From Gammaproteobacteria bacterium (GTDB taxonomy: Bacteria > Pseudomonadota > Gammaproteobacteria > UBA6429 > Thiohalophilaceae), in NCBI GenBank assembly GCA_016194635.1, contig JACQBC010000013.1:1-64000 (forward strand): DNA of 64,000 nt, in the 5' to 3' direction. Under the pieces are notes generated by a model. That model saw only the letters and a list, made by a program, of their open reading frames with translations. It was not told the origin of the DNA and did no database searches. Positions 59,776 to 64,000 of the stretch are shown piece by piece (the stretch's first letter is position 1; every line of letters starts with the position of its first letter). A program made the position numbers and the translations under genes.

Positions 59776-60516
59776 CTACGGAATCGGGGTGTCCTCATCC
59801 TCACGTCCGGTAAACACTTCGATAGAGACGTTACGTGTGGATTTTTTATCTCGGTACATAGCGTGATCCGCCCGCTCGATCAATTCCATATAGGTTCGTC
59901 CATCCATGGGATAAATGGCAACCCCGATGCTCGCCGTCACCCGAATCGTATAGCCCTCGATCACATAGGGCTTGGCCAGATTCTTGCGCAACTCCGATAA
60001 CAACACCGGGATACCGATGGGATTGTGGAGGGCTTGCAGTAGAATAACGAACTCGTCCCCCCCGTAACGGCAAACGGTATCAATACCACGCACGCTCAGG
60101 TTGAGACGTTTTGCCACCGCCATCAGAAGCTTATCGCCGTAGGTATGACCGAGATTGTCGTTAATGTGCTTAAATTCATCCAGATCAAGTAACAGCAGTG
60201 CCATCGGTTTATGGTGCCGCTCGGCCTGAGAAGCCGCTTGCGCAAAGCGATCCTCCAACAGGCTACGGTTGGGAAGCCCGGTCAACCCGTCATGGAACGC
60301 CTGGTAACGCACCTTGGTTTCCCGCTGTTTGAGCTCGGCGCAGTTCTGCTGCAGGAGTTTAAGTTGCTGGTGGGCGAGTTTGAGCTGCTGACGGGTGGTG
60401 GTAAGCGCCATGTATAGATCGTTGGGATCGCTGTTCTCGCCTAAGTTATCATTATCACTAGTAAAAGTGGAACGACTGTCCCTACTCTCTAGAACCGATA
60501 AACTATCCTGCGCCAT
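59776..60516 (-). CDS. Diguanylate cyclase (GGDEF)
   Basis: The 246 residues have a coiled-coil front (LTTTRQQLKLAHQQLKLLQQ) and a GGDEF domain: HDGLTGLPNRSLLEDRFAQA, LLLDLDEFKHINDNLGHTYG and the active-site loop CRYGGDEFVILL. No sensor domain and no membrane segment. An inhibitory-site RxxD cannot be assigned safely. It lies downstream of the two-component pair of the stressosome operon and is probably the c-di-GMP output of that pathway. Confidence 0.93.
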   Translation of the reverse strand: MAQDSLSVLESRDSRSTFTSDNDNLGENSDPNDLYMALTTTRQQLKLAHQQLKLLQQNCAELKQRETKVRYQAFHDGLTGLPNRSLLEDRFAQAASQAERHHKPMALLLLDLDEFKHINDNLGHTYGDKLLMAVAKRLNLSVRGIDTVCRYGGDEFVILLQALHNPIGIPVLLSELRKNLAKPYVIEGYTIRVTASIGVAIYPMDGRTYMELIERADHAMYRDKKSTRNVSIEVFTGREDEDTPIP

Positions 60517-60665
60517 GGAACCATTCCCCGCCTTTTTTTCAAAACCCGCGTCAAGATGCGCTATATCGCCGTAAGCAACAATCCATGAAACACCGCACTT
60601 GTTGTCAGAAGAATTACTGAACGGAATGTAGATGGATTACTGATGTTTAGCGGCTTAAACGCGGG

Positions 60666-61298
60666 CTAGGCCTGGATGATGCCACGGCGGATCGCATACC
60701 GCACCAATCCGGCGGTGGTGTGGATATTAAGCTTATCCATCAGTCGGGTTCGATGGGTCTCGACCGTTTTGGCGCTGACGCATAACAACGCGGCGATTTT
60801 CTTCGAGGTGTTACCCTCTGCAATCAGTTGTAATACTTGACGTTCCCGGCCACTCAGGGGTTCATCGAAGGGGTCGGTCTTGCTCAGATACGCCTGTACC
60901 ACTACTTTGGAAATTCCTGGGCTTAAATACAATTCGCCGCGCGCCACCTGGGTGATGGCTTGCAATAATTCCTCGCGTGAATGGTTTTTTATTACATACC
61001 CGCGGATACCTATCCGCAAGGCCTCTAATACGTAATGATCCTCGGTGTACATGGTCAGTAAAATCGGATGGGTGCGCGGGGATGCCTTGAGTATTTCCCG
61101 CGCGGCATCCAACCCATTTAACACCGGCATCGACAGATCCAATACCGCCACATCGGGGTTATGATCACGCACCCACTGCAGCGCTTGTTTGCCATCCGCC
61201 GCTTCACCCACGACCAGGATACCTTCGCGCTCCAGCAGGGTTTTAATCCCTTGACGGACAATGATGTGATCATCGGCAAGTACAACTCGAATCGGCAT
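60666..61298 (-). CDS. NarL/LuxR-type response regulator
   Basis: The 210 residues consist of a receiver (VVLADDHIIVRQGIKTLL, phospho-Asp in VAVLDLSMPVLNG, Lys in YVIKNHSRE) and a LuxR-type helix-turn-helix (LSGRERQVLQLIAEGNTSKK, VSAKTVETHRTRLMDKLNIH). The start codon overlaps the kinase stop by one base, so the two are translationally coupled. It should regulate transcription in response to the kinase upstream. Confidence 0.96.
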   Translation of the reverse strand: MPIRVVLADDHIIVRQGIKTLLEREGILVVGEAADGKQALQWVRDHNPDVAVLDLSMPVLNGLDAAREILKASPRTHPILLTMYTEDHYVLEALRIGIRGYVIKNHSREELLQAITQVARGELYLSPGISKVVVQAYLSKTDPFDEPLSGRERQVLQLIAEGNTSKKIAALLCVSAKTVETHRTRLMDKLNIHTTAGLVRYAIRRGIIQA

Positions 61299-62227
61299 TA
61301 TTTATTCCTCAATGGAATCGAAATCAGCAGCTCAGTGCCTTGTTTGGGGGCGGAATTGATCCGTAATGTTCCACCCAGGGCGTTTAACCGCTCGCGGATA
61401 GCAATCAAACCCAAACCACGTCGACCCTTCTGGGTCTCGACCTCTTGCGGATTAAACCCAACCCCATTATCACGCACTGAGCAATGGAGTTGCGTTGTCG
61501 CACGGCTGATCAGAACACGTACCTGGCTGGCGTGCGCATGTTTGCTGGCATTCACTAAGGCTTCTTGAACGATACGGTACAGGGTAGTTTCAATTGTAGC
61601 AGAAGGCCGGTCGGCCATCGAACCCTCGACATTGATCGTAACCCCGGTGCGCTTGGTGATCCCCTTGGCGAGAAATTCCAGTGCCGGTAATAACCCTAAA
61701 TCATCCAACAGAGTCGGGCGCAGCTCATGCGACATGTCGCGCAGCTGCCCTTCGATGCGATCCAGGTGGCCGCGTATTTCTTGAATCCGTTCCTTACTCG
61801 AAGGCAATTCATAGGCCAAATCCGCCAGTGCAAAATGTACCACCGCCAATAATTGGGTGGCATCATCGTGCAGGGTATGGGCAATACGCTTGGTTTCCTC
61901 TTCAATGGTTTCATTCAGGCGGTGTAGCACCGCATTGGCTTCACGAAAACTGCGGTGGGTAATTTCAAACGGCGATAAACTCTCGATGAGAAACGCATGA
62001 CCCCTGACGATCTGGTTCAGGTTATTACTACCCCCGTCGCCGGACCGCAGCAGGGTTTGCACCGCGTTAGCATAGACGTTGACCATAGCCAAGACTCCTA
62101 ATCCTTCTACCAGGGCCCTGCGCCCCAATTCGTAACCGTGGCGTAAACTCACCTCTCCGCCTCCCGCCAAATGCTCGCGTAAGGCTTGGATATAGGCTTC
62201 CTCTAGCGTCGGTTCAACTTGGATCAC
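61298..62227 (-). CDS. NarX-type histidine kinase with RsbU-N-like domain
   Basis: The C-terminal half is a HisKA_3/HATPase kinase: the phospho-His lies in RIAHTLHDDATQLLAVVHFA, the N box in EALVNASKHAHAS, and G boxes in VRDNGVGFNP and RRGLGLIAIRERL. The N-terminal 90 residues (YIQALREHLAGGGEVSLRHG, YELGRRALVEGLGVLAMVNV) resemble the helical N-domain of RsbU, which binds RsbT. There is no membrane segment. With rsbRSTX upstream, the kinase could be switched by released RsbT. The resemblance is my pattern judgement. Confidence 0.88.
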   Translation of the reverse strand: MIQVEPTLEEAYIQALREHLAGGGEVSLRHGYELGRRALVEGLGVLAMVNVYANAVQTLLRSGDGGSNNLNQIVRGHAFLIESLSPFEITHRSFREANAVLHRLNETIEEETKRIAHTLHDDATQLLAVVHFALADLAYELPSSKERIQEIRGHLDRIEGQLRDMSHELRPTLLDDLGLLPALEFLAKGITKRTGVTINVEGSMADRPSATIETTLYRIVQEALVNASKHAHASQVRVLISRATTQLHCSVRDNGVGFNPQEVETQKGRRGLGLIAIRERLNALGGTLRINSAPKQGTELLISIPLRNK

Positions 62228-62231
62228 GCAC

Positions 62232-62834
62232 TTATCCTAAGTAACGCGCAACCAGGACCAACGCGTCGTCGGTGCAACGTGCTTCGCGCGCCATGATATG
62301 TTCGGCGATTTTCTGCGCTGAGATGTGCAACGGCAAGTCATGGCAAAACGAGTCGCGCACTCCATCGGTGGCGAAAATAAGTATATCTCCGGGTGTCACC
62401 GGAAGCACACTCACATCCATGGGTGGTACACGGTGTCCCAGGGTTCCGCCGTGTAACCGCAGTGTGTGCACCGTACGCAAGGAATTCCCCGCCACTAATC
62501 TACCTTCAACATTACCCACCCCCGCCCAGGTGAGGGTGTTCGCCGCACTGTCAAAGACCGCCACACTCATGACGGCTCCGCGGGATGCGCGCAGGGTTTC
62601 ATGACAGTCGTTGATTAAACTCTTCAGGGTTTGTTGCGATCGCACTTGCAGTGTTGCCACCGCTAAGGCGGCCGCATGGGCCGCTTCAACACCATGCCCA
62701 ATACCATCCACCACAGCCAACAACACACCTCCATCAGACGGTACCACGGCATACATATCGCCCGAGGTGGACTCACCCGACCGCGTTAAACTGGCAGTGC
62801 CCACTTCCAATAGGGCGAGGTTCAGCGTTTCCAT
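62232..62834 (-). CDS. rsbX: RsbX-like SpoIIE-family phosphatase
   Basis: The 200-residue PP2C/SpoIIE protein has the metal-binding motifs SGDMYAVVPSDGGVLLAVVD, GIGHGVEAAHAAALAV, and FATDGVRDSF. RsbX resets the stressosome by removing phosphates from RsbR and RsbS. It overlaps rsbT by 13 bases and ends four bases before the kinase start. Confidence 0.9.
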   Translation of the reverse strand: METLNLALLEVGTASLTRSGESTSGDMYAVVPSDGGVLLAVVDGIGHGVEAAHAAALAVATLQVRSQQTLKSLINDCHETLRASRGAVMSVAVFDSAANTLTWAGVGNVEGRLVAGNSLRTVHTLRLHGGTLGHRVPPMDVSVLPVTPGDILIFATDGVRDSFCHDLPLHISAQKIAEHIMAREARCTDDALVLVARYLG

Positions 62835-63223
62835 TTTTTAACAGTCACGGTGGTGCCCTGTCCGGGCTGCGAGTTAATATGAAATTCGTCCATCAACCGG
62901 CTCACGCCCGGAAGACCCAATCCCAGGCTACCGGAGGTGGAATAACCCACCCGCATCGCCTGCCCAATGTCGATGATCCCCGGTCCTTGGTCCTGCGCTA
63001 CCACGGTAATCCCGCAGGGATCGCTGTTGGCTATCACTTCAAGGATAATCTCGCCCTGTTTTGCATATAAAATAATATTGCGGGCCAACTCCGATATCGC
63101 CGTCGCGATCAAGGTTAAATCCGTCGAGCCAAAACCAACCTCCGTCCCCAAGGCGCGCCCCTGCATGCGGGCAGTAACAATGTCCACATCGGTTTGAATC
63201 GCGACACGAATTTCATTTGACAC
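62822..63223 (-). CDS. rsbT: RsbT-like switch kinase
   Basis: The 133 residues form a GHKL ATPase: SELARNIILYAKQGEIILEV with the N box, VVAQDQGPGIIDIGQAMRVG, and SGSLGLGLPGVSRLMDEFHI. In stressosomes RsbT phosphorylates RsbS and RsbR, leaves the complex and activates a partner with an RsbU-N domain. The start overlaps rsbS by 11 bases. Confidence 0.94.
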   Translation of the reverse strand: MSNEIRVAIQTDVDIVTARMQGRALGTEVGFGSTDLTLIATAISELARNIILYAKQGEIILEVIANSDPCGITVVAQDQGPGIIDIGQAMRVGYSTSGSLGLGLPGVSRLMDEFHINSQPGQGTTVTVKKWKR

Positions 63224-63593
63224 GCGGGCCGGTCTCTTTGCGCAAGCTGTTCTGATTAAAGAACGCCAGGCCTTCTTCCAGGTCCAGCGCTGCAGGCACG
63301 CCCTCCATGGTTAAACCTAGCTGCACCATCGCAAAGGCAACTTCGGGTTGAATCCCCACGATTACGGTGTCGGCACCGCGTAACTTGATCATTCGTACCA
63401 AGTCATGCAAGGTGCGTGAAGCAAACGAGTCCATGACGTCCAGCACGGTCACGTCAATAATGACGCCGCGCGAGCGCAAGGTACTCACCTTGAGGACGAG
63501 GTTATCCCGCAATTGCATTAAATCTGAATCCGATAACGCGGATTGAATCGATGCGATCAGGTACGGTCCTTGTTTAAGTATTGGAACTTGCAC
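63213..63593 (-). CDS. rsbS: RsbS-like STAS stressosome protein
   Basis: A 126-residue STAS domain with the start VPILKQGPYLIASIQSALSD, common to RsbS. The phospho-Ser lies in VMDSFASRTLHDL, equivalent to Ser59 of B. subtilis RsbS. RsbS forms the stressosome scaffold with RsbR and holds RsbT. It lies 12 bp after the rsbR stop. Confidence 0.94.
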   Translation of the reverse strand: MQVPILKQGPYLIASIQSALSDSDLMQLRDNLVLKVSTLRSRGVIIDVTVLDVMDSFASRTLHDLVRMIKLRGADTVIVGIQPEVAFAMVQLGLTMEGVPAALDLEEGLAFFNQNSLRKETGPRVK

Positions 63594-63605
63594 GCGCCTC
63601 CGCTT

Positions 63606-64000
63606 TTAGGTTTGTTGAACCAGGTCATGGCTCGATACCACTTTATAACCGAGTAAACGTTCAGCTTCCTCGATACCGCCTTGCAAGTCCCCCACGGTGG
63701 TCATCTTACTGAGATCCACACCGATATTCACCAAGGTTTGGGAAATTTCCGGGGACAGTCCGGTGACAATCACCGTCGCGCCCAATAAGCGTGATGCCTC
63801 GACGGTTAACACCAGGTGATTGGCCACATGCGTATCCATTGCGGCCACACCGGTGATATCAATCACCACCACCTTGGCACGGTTGGTGCGGATGGCGCGC
63901 AGCAATTGCTCGGTTAACTGCCGCGCGCGTTGCGGATCGATCAATCCGATGATGGGTAGAATCAGTAACCGTTCGCGTACTTGCAATACGGGCGTGGATA
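63606..64000 (-). CDS. rsbR: RsbR-like stressosome sensor, C-terminal STAS domain (runs off right edge)
   Basis: The visible 130 residues form the STAS domain with the RsbR-type lead-in STPVLQVRERLLILPIIGLI and the phospho-Thr region ITGVAAMDTHVANHLVLTVE. A TTG at 63986 could serve as a start, but the conserved STPVLQ segment is open to the window edge, so a sensor domain probably lies beyond it. RsbR proteins sense signals through variable N-domains and recruit RsbS and RsbT. Confidence 0.9.
   Translation of the reverse strand, partial: STPVLQVRERLLILPIIGLIDPQRARQLTEQLLRAIRTNRAKVVVIDITGVAAMDTHVANHLVLTVEASRLLGATVIVTGLSPEISQTLVNIGVDLSKMTTVGDLQGGIEEAERLLGYKVVSSHDLVQQT

What the first reader, a model, noticed from the sequence alone, without database searches (positions are those of the whole stretch)
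59776..64000. Stressosome operon wired to a two-component system and a diguanylate cyclase
The order RsbR-RsbS-RsbT-RsbX-kinase-LuxR regulator, with overlaps between genes, and a GGDEF enzyme next, replaces the sigma-B cascade known from Gram-positive bacteria. The kinase N-terminus looks like the RsbT-binding domain of RsbU. RsbT released by stress could thus directly switch a histidine kinase. This gives a testable complete route from stress sensing to transcription and c-di-GMP.
Basis: partly seen in the sequence, partly recalled or inferred. Interest (0 to 1): 0.7.

Follow-up and report, generated by a model that had tools for sequence, protein, structure and literature searches.

The report
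Stressosome wired to a histidine kinase
A bacterial stress-sensing complex sits in one operon with a sensor kinase that carries the docking domain for the complex's messenger protein, so stress probably switches a two-component system here instead of a sigma factor; the idea is already in print, but this family shows an unusually unchanging sensor and offers exact tests.

Summary
In detail: rsbR-rsbS-rsbT-rsbX-kinase-LuxR regulator, mostly overlapping, then a GGDEF gene after 149 nt. rsbR, cut by the window edge, encodes 300 aa. No sigma-factor match lies on this contig. RsbU_N genes lie within about 1 kb of an RsbT-like gene at 91 of 94 distinct loci. RsbT switching this kinase is the best explanation, but not new: Heinz 2022 and eLife 2025 state it for stressosome operons, and the latter models one such kinase.

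The c-di-GMP arm is weak: the GGDEF protein has no RsbU_N and is not most like the adjacent GGDEF of relative L043.

Not seen in the papers I read: RsbR's globin-fold sensor is 80-95% identical in 24 selected relatives from several phyla, while aligned kinases are 31-65% identical; Pro replaces the T171-type phosphosite in 20 of 76 RsbRs, this one included; in HisKA_3 kinases without a PAS insert the linker is 32 residues or one of four lengths in one heptad phase; Asn105 aligns with RsbU Gln94, an RsbT-bypass site.

The parts
63606..64000 (-). rsbR, 3' part; whole gene is C10:63606-64508 (L002:4607-5509), 300 aa: globin-fold sensor + STAS
63213..63593 (-). rsbS, STAS protein, conserved Ser56 (phosphosite equivalent)
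62822..63223 (-). rsbT, HATPase switch kinase; R19 and R23 present
62232..62834 (-). rsbX-like PP2C (SpoIIE family) phosphatase, 200 aa
61298..62227 (-). histidine kinase: RsbU_N (res 11-88), helical linker, HisKA_3 with His120, HATPase_c
61964..62197 (-). RsbU_N domain coding stretch
60666..61298 (-). NarL/LuxR-type response regulator (Response_reg + GerE)
60579..60620 (-). block alignable between regulator and next gene in L036, L042, L043; degenerate copy of 23-nt-spaced repeats (candidate operator, weak)
59776..60516 (-). GGDEF protein, 246 aa, GGDEF and RxxD motifs read in the sequence; neighbour, not shown to belong to the module

Best explanation
This is a stressosome (RsbR, RsbS, RsbT, RsbX) whose output is a two-component system. 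Unstressed, RsbR and RsbS hold RsbT. Stress sensed by the globin-fold domain of RsbR frees RsbT, helped by RsbT phosphorylating RsbS Ser56; RsbX resets this. Free RsbT binds the RsbU-type N-terminal domain and the linker helix of the kinase dimer, stiffens the linker and changes kinase activity at His120; phosphate passes to the LuxR-type regulator. Shown: genes, domains, conserved residues, recurrent linkage, one continuous predicted helix from RsbU_N into the DHp. Inferred: complex assembly, RsbT release, binding, sign of the effect, phosphotransfer, target genes. Control of the GGDEF gene, if any, would be transcriptional.
For: RsbU_N over cut-off, sole match in the genome. A profile of 30 such N-domains hits only RsbU chains among 177,635 PDB sequences at E<=0.01 (4 rows, best 6e-11). 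Same-strand RsbT-like gene within 1,020 nt of the RsbU_N gene in 93 of 96 records, 91 of 94 distinct loci; all but the window's own were found with RsbU_N or the kinase N-terminus, not with RsbT. RsbT Arg19 80 of 80 rows, Arg23 73 of 80, and kinase Glu25, aligned with RsbU Glu24, 28 of 28: residues that PMC12143880 places in the RsbT-RsbU interface. Asn105, aligned with RsbU Gln94, is Asn in 20 of 20 short-linker kinases. AF2 model, pLDDT 84.9, single helix 69-140 through the linker to His120; kinase core like DesK/VraS. Linker lengths: 32 in 20 of 28; 36, 57, 64, 85 share one heptad phase.
Against: No complex could be predicted or tested. Other interface residues named in PMC12143880 are not kept: RsbU Tyr28 (0 of 28) and Ile78 (Ser/Ala/Gly) in the kinases; RsbT Asn24 (none of 80 rows) and Asp92 (Val here; Asp in 61 of 80 rows, 18 of 36 non-Nocardia); RsbU Arg91 aligns with His102 here (Arg in 15 of 20 short-linker kinases). 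The Gln94-Asn105 alignment needs a 4-residue gap and means nothing for the 8 other kinases. Core (32) and long linkers differ by 4 modulo 7, and HisKA-type kinases show mixed phases. Three loci with RsbU_N lack an RsbT-like gene. Heinz et al. got no RsbT-kinase interaction in Vibrio vulnificus, whose kinase has no RsbU_N.
Confidence: 0.75

Rival explanations
1. RsbT acts on the kinase by phosphorylating it, not by stoichiometric binding, as proposed for stressosome targets without RsbU_N.
For: RsbT keeps its ATP-site residues (N49, D78, G80, G82 in 80 of 80 rows); Heinz et al. suggest phosphorylation where RsbU_N is missing.
Against: RsbU_N is present here; in B. subtilis contacts of RsbT with N-domain and linker activate RsbU (passages). 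The kept ATP site is explained by RsbS phosphorylation.
Confidence: 0.12
2. RsbT binding switches the kinase to a phosphatase or off (negative output) instead of activating it.
For: HisKA_3 kinases such as DesK are bifunctional (phosphatase-state entry 7ssj among the matches); DesK chains lead the fold matches. Nothing in the sequence gives the sign.
Against: In RsbU, linker ordering activates (passages).
Confidence: 0.3
3. The GGDEF gene is a true last gene of the operon or a target of the regulator, so stress raises c-di-GMP.
For: GGDEF gene directly downstream of the regulator, same strand, also in L036 and L043; GGDEF-matching genes just upstream of the operon in L055 and L056; a GGDEF match somewhere in the flank in 6 of 37 non-Nocardia and 0 of 43 Nocardia loci, without a background rate. 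Proteins joining RsbU_N and GGDEF exist: L139 (25.7 bits, just over cut-off), L072 (below cut-off).
Against: 149-nt gap; no RsbU_N on this GGDEF protein; it resembles the distal L043 GGDEF (4e-62) more than the adjacent one (2e-40); L042 has a sugar transferase at that place; most loci show no GGDEF match in the flank held, though several contigs end early.
Confidence: 0.3
4. The stressosome feeds a sigma factor through an unlinked RsbU/RsbV/RsbW set, and the kinase is a bystander.
For: Two REC-SpoIIE-HATPase proteins with STAS matches beside them on C3 and C4.
Against: Neither carries RsbU_N; they have receiver domains; no sigma-factor match on C10; the sigma/STAS pair on C32 lies beside a CheY-like gene and looks flagellar (read by eye).
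Confidence: 0.05

Closest known systems
RsbU_N-histidine kinases in stressosome operons (Heinz et al. 2022 PMC9237108; NreB-like MBI3545564.1 in eLife 2025 PMC12143880)
   Same: [quoted passage not shown] proposed RsbT target; dimer with coiled-coil linker modelled.
   Different: Heinz et al. searched for operons with globin-coupled (haem) RsbR; here RsbR has an RsbRD_N-like globin fold without an apparent haem ligand. Whether MBI3545564.1 is L043 or another relative was not tested.
B. subtilis RsbRST-RsbU-RsbVW-SigB
   Same: R, S, T, X proteins and the RsbU-type N-domain.
   Different: Kinase and regulator in place of PP2C phosphatase, RsbV, RsbW and SigB; RsbX follows RsbT.
Vibrio vulnificus stressosome (RsbRSTX, VvD1, VvD2)
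   Same: RSTX followed by two-component genes.
   Different: Haem-globin RsbR and no RsbU_N on the downstream proteins.
Moorella thermoacetica MtG
   Same: RsbU_N output and c-di-GMP link (as cited in PMC12143880).
   Different: There RsbU_N sits on the GGDEF protein; here it sits on the kinase.
DesK/VraS/NarX-type HisKA_3 kinases with NarL-type regulators
   Same: DHp and ATPase domains.
   Different: RsbU_N as input; no transmembrane part seen, but none was tested for with a predictor.

Membership tests
Stressosome module RsbRSTX | RsbR: sensor + STAS; best PDB matches are RsbR chains | tested here: met
   PDB RsbR chains, best E 5e-34; Foldseek 7b0u, Listeria stressosome, 6e-12
Stressosome module RsbRSTX | RsbS STAS with conserved phosphoserine | tested here: met
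   Asp-Ser-Phe in 77 of 77 rows
Stressosome module RsbRSTX | RsbT HATPase kinase with ATP-site residues | tested here: met
   N49, D78, G80, G82 in 80 of 80 rows
Stressosome module RsbRSTX | single-domain PP2C RsbX | tested here: met
   SpoIIE family 50.9 bits, residues 33-197 of 200
Stressosome module RsbRSTX | assembly into the 1.8 MDa complex | not testable with these tools
   needs purified proteins
RsbU_N domain family (PF08673) | score over gathering cut-off | tested here: met
   27.9 bits, 30.6, cut-off 25.5
RsbU_N domain family (PF08673) | binds RsbT | not testable with these tools
   no complex prediction offered
RsbU phosphatase | C-terminal PP2C domain | tested here: not met
   HisKA_3 + HATPase_c instead
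SigB cascade operon | RsbV, RsbW and sigma factor in the locus | tested here: not met
   no Sigma70_r2 match on C10 among 16; on C10 the STAS matches are RsbR and RsbS and the HATPase_c_2 matches RsbT and the kinase
HisKA_3 two-component system | phosphoacceptor His, ATPase domain, adjacent REC-LuxR regulator | tested here: met
   His120-Asp121 invariant in 28 of 28
RsbT-controlled diguanylate cyclase (MtG type) | RsbU_N on the GGDEF protein | tested here: not met
Haem globin-coupled RsbR | proximal His in the sensor | tested here: inconclusive
   only invariant sensor His is H30, in the first helix; matches RsbR_N 2bnl (Z 15.2) and also haem globin sensors
RsbRD_N domain (PF14361) | score over gathering cut-off | tested here: not met
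   22.8 bits, cut-off 24.3; 24 of 25 aligned members match at E<=0.01

The most novel reading that the evidence does not exclude
A cross-phylum stressosome lineage with a frozen sensor and swappable outputs: one nearly invariant globin-fold RsbR (80-95% identical sensor from Gammaproteobacteria to Nocardia, at saturated synonymous sites) drives HisKA_3 kinases in Gram-negative phyla and a PP2C-HATPase fusion in Nocardia. RsbRs with Pro at the T171 position would signal without that phosphorylation; RsbT would switch the kinase by ordering a polar-cored linker (Asn105), and the regulator would act on the adjacent gene (GGDEF or exopolysaccharide) through repeats 23 nt apart.
Probability: 0.25. 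Interest if true: 0.7.

Novelty: new member of a known kind. Interest (0 to 1): 0.45.

Why it matters
Whether RsbT can directly switch a histidine kinase is stated in print but, in the passages I read, not tested. This compact operon of apparently soluble proteins allows the test with purified parts, and homology gives single-residue predictions (Glu25 and Asn105 in the kinase; Arg19 in RsbT). The near-invariant RsbR sensor suggests one shared, unknown signal or ligand across phyla, and RsbRs that naturally have Pro at the T171 position bear on the open question, raised for B. subtilis in PMC3944199, of how far RsbR phosphorylation is needed.

Tried and rejected
GGDEF as a direct RsbT target: rejected, no RsbU_N. 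A nearby sigma factor: no match on C10; the C32 sigma/STAS pair reads as flagellar FliA beside a CheY-like gene (by eye). Exopolysaccharide as the conserved target: a sugar transferase lies within the fetched flank in 6 of 37 non-Nocardia and 0 of 43 Nocardia loci, but the window genome's only Bac_transf match is on another contig and no background rate was measured, so this is a lead only. Operator motif: three exact TTCCGG copies 23 nt apart in L036 (0 of 1000 shuffles reached 3), one exact copy each in L042 and L043 (P 0.28 and 0.08), none in the window; with one mismatch allowed no region exceeds its shuffles (P 0.12 to 0.48). A composite pattern has one match in the window genome, its own place, so no regulon came out. 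A GGTTGAC element precedes rsbR in the window, L036, L042 and L043; a 16-nt word search gave summed mismatches of 11 against 12 to 15 in 20 shuffles, and these four are related; the generic promoter scan found no excess (3 found, 5.4 expected). Heptad rule: clean only for long-linker HisKA_3 kinases (36, 57, 64, 85; noticed after the fact), not for HisKA-type ones (54, 54, 37, 37, 43, 40, 40). Phosphosite loss at both RsbR positions: 14 of 76 rows, but 8 of those have Thr one residue on, so only 6 are clear; I lowered the novel case from a first 0.3 to 0.25 for this. RsbU_N does not appear among the rows shown for the kinase model, whose lists are filled by the kinase core.

Paper searches: 9, open-access library only. 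Seen as passages: PMC9237108, PMC12143880 (one section), PMC4976288, PMC3944199, PMC8115616. Pane-Farre 2005, Quin 2012 and Hardwick 2007 only as cited there. My statement that the RsbR conservation, the phosphosite change and the linker phase are not in print rests on these alone.
Full report
What is there. On the - strand the window holds rsbR (cut), rsbS, rsbT, rsbX, a histidine kinase and a LuxR-type regulator, with overlaps or gaps of at most 13 nt, then a GGDEF gene after 149 nt. Extension of the contig gave the whole RsbR, 300 aa, and upstream of it a UvrD-type helicase gene.

RsbU_N matches the kinase N-terminus over the curated cut-off and nowhere else in the 3.7-Mb genome at E<=0.001. 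A profile of 30 such N-domains finds only RsbU chains in the PDB at E<=0.01 (4 rows). The kinase core belongs with DesK/VraS. No sigma-factor match lies on the contig (16 elsewhere).

How general. In an even draw of 369 genomes of the class, 7 have RsbU_N, and in all 7 it is fused to a histidine kinase, of HisKA_3 or HisKA type (HisKA_3 of L036 is below its cut-off). In 398 genomes of the phylum a profile search found 9, the window's included. A scan of named genomes with kinase residues 1-114 gave 116 relatives, the best 80 kept: 43 Nocardia and 37 others (Proteobacteria, Nitrospirae, Acidobacteria, Planctomycetota, Verrucomicrobia/Opitutus, Bacteroidetes, Eisenbacteria, a Methanoperedens record, a Polyangiaceae record; names as in the record titles, many MAGs). 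The uninterrupted order R-S-T-X-kinase-regulator stands in 22 of the 37; some others are cut by contig ends. Of all 96 records with an RsbU_N gene, 93 have an RsbT-like gene on the same strand within 1,020 nt; two records are duplicates (L002 = window, L037 = L077), leaving 91 of 94; misses L039, L089, L142. Several Nocardia loci are near-identical, so these are not 94 independent cases. Of 17 RsbU_N proteins scanned one by one are kinases, one (Nocardia L070) is PAS-SpoIIE-HATPase and one (L072) GGDEF-EAL (RsbU_N below cut-off, 21.6 bits). Of three more scanned, L135 and the second L139 protein are kinases and the first L139 protein is RsbU_N-GGDEF; a fourth, L140, is a kinase whose RsbU_N was seen only by my profile. 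Mycobacterial RSTX-RsbUW operons are in print (passages).

How it may work. In B. subtilis RsbT binds the RsbU N-domain and linker and orders the linker; RsbU Q94L bypasses RsbT (passages). Here the AF2 model of the kinase (28-row alignment, pLDDT 84.9, pTM 0.48) has one helix, residues 69-140, from the last RsbU_N helix through the linker to His120. Kinase Glu25, aligned to RsbU Glu24, is invariant in 28 of 28; Asn105 aligns to Gln94 after a 4-residue gap and is Asn in 20 of 20 short-linker kinases (the other 8 cannot be compared there). RsbT Arg19 is kept in 80 of 80 and Arg23 in 73 of 80 rows. Against this, RsbU Tyr28 and Ile78 and RsbT Asn24 have no counterpart, Asp92 is Val here (Asp in 61 of 80 rows), and RsbU Arg91 aligns with His102 here (Arg in 15 of 20). 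The distance from Glu88 to His120 is 32 in 20 of 28 kinases, and 36, 57, 64 or 85 in 7, lengths that differ among themselves by multiples of 7; the last (L049) has a PAS insert. This fits a signal passing through a coiled coil but was noticed after the fact, and HisKA-type kinases do not follow one phase.

The sensor. In the 25 RsbRs aligned (chosen as full-length and close; partial and divergent ones such as L048, L058, L060, L061, L064, L068, L071-L073 and L106, and all but two Nocardia, left out), residues 22-150 of the 24 others are 80-95% identical to the window's. Over all loci with a BLAST hit (best segment, so of varied length; L037 and L077 both counted) the non-Nocardia medians are RsbR 83% (n 40), RsbS 70% (40), RsbT 56% (48), RsbX 43% (41), kinase 41% (41); this includes RsbRs at 31-39% (L034, L035, L038, L139, L140). 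For 43 Nocardia RsbRs the median is 79%. Fourfold sites agree at only 0.33-0.53 (24 pairs), which points to purifying selection and not recent transfer. The model (pLDDT 79.3) gives a globin-fold sensor, closest to RsbR_N 2bnl (Z 15.2, rmsd 2.2, 131 aligned), then pXO1-118/pXO2-61 and 3zta; phycocyanins and DosC follow at Z about 12.7-13 and AfGcHK globins match by Foldseek. The only invariant sensor histidine, H30, is in the first helix, so a canonical haem ligand is not apparent; I did not align residues on a haem globin.

Phosphosites. The position that aligns with the Thr varied in PDB RsbR entries (A, T or E in the three chains shown; T175 in Listeria, T171 in B. subtilis, numbers partly recalled) is Pro192 here; in 76 rows it is P 20, S 47, T 5, A 2, G 1, gap 1. 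The T205-type position is Thr226 here; S 58, A 13, V 3, T 1, Q 1. Fourteen of 76 have no S/T at either, but 8 of these have Thr at the next residue, leaving 6 clear cases. RsbS Ser56 is 77 of 77. In B. subtilis T171A S59A stressosomes still signal (PMC3944199, passages).

The c-di-GMP arm. A GGDEF gene sits just downstream of the regulator in the window, L036 and L043; GGDEF matches lie just upstream of the operon in L055 and L056, 2.6 to 3 kb downstream in L057 and L054, and fused in L072; in all 6 of 37 non-Nocardia and 0 of 43 Nocardia loci of the named set have one in the flank held. The window GGDEF is closer to the distal L043 GGDEF than to the adjacent one. In L042 the place is taken by a sugar transferase (Pfam) and what reads by eye as an exopolysaccharide cluster. 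Between regulator and next gene, L036 has three TTCCGG copies 23 nt apart; L042 and L043 have partial ones and the window a degenerate block. Regulator control of whatever lies next is a guess.

Verdict. The frozen sensor and the Pro-for-Thr phosphosite deserve follow-up.

Noticed in passing
L036:4750-5469, L043:8092-8865: Crp/Fnr-type regulator gene beside the PAS-GGDEF gene next to the stressosome in L036 and L043 (Pfam for L043 only).
   Followed up: partly
L042, L045, L050, L065, L067, L074: Exopolysaccharide-initiating sugar transferase genes within the fetched flank of the stressosome-kinase locus in 6 of 37 non-Nocardia loci.
   Followed up: partly
L034, L035, L038, L139, L140: Second RsbT-like gene directly after rsbT, before rsbX, in divergent stressosome loci with HisKA-type RsbU_N kinases.
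   Followed up: no
L139:7216-9893: Two tandem RsbU_N outputs in one operon: RsbU_N-GGDEF followed by RsbU_N-PAS-kinase-receiver, possibly one RsbT driving two outputs.
   Followed up: partly
L136, L137, L141: RsbU_N proteins beside a divergent RsbT-like gene with no RsbR/RsbS recognised by phmmer in the stretch held.
   Followed up: no
window:58728-59735 (+): 335-aa protein next to the GGDEF gene on the other strand, no Pfam match at E<=0.01 and no NCBIfam match at E<=0.001.
   Followed up: no
G000:C4:36138-38153 and G000:C3:170-2202: Two REC-SpoIIE-HATPase partner-switch proteins with a STAS match beside each, resembling Pseudomonas HsbR/HsbA (name recalled); the C3 STAS match has a TAA inside.
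   Followed up: no
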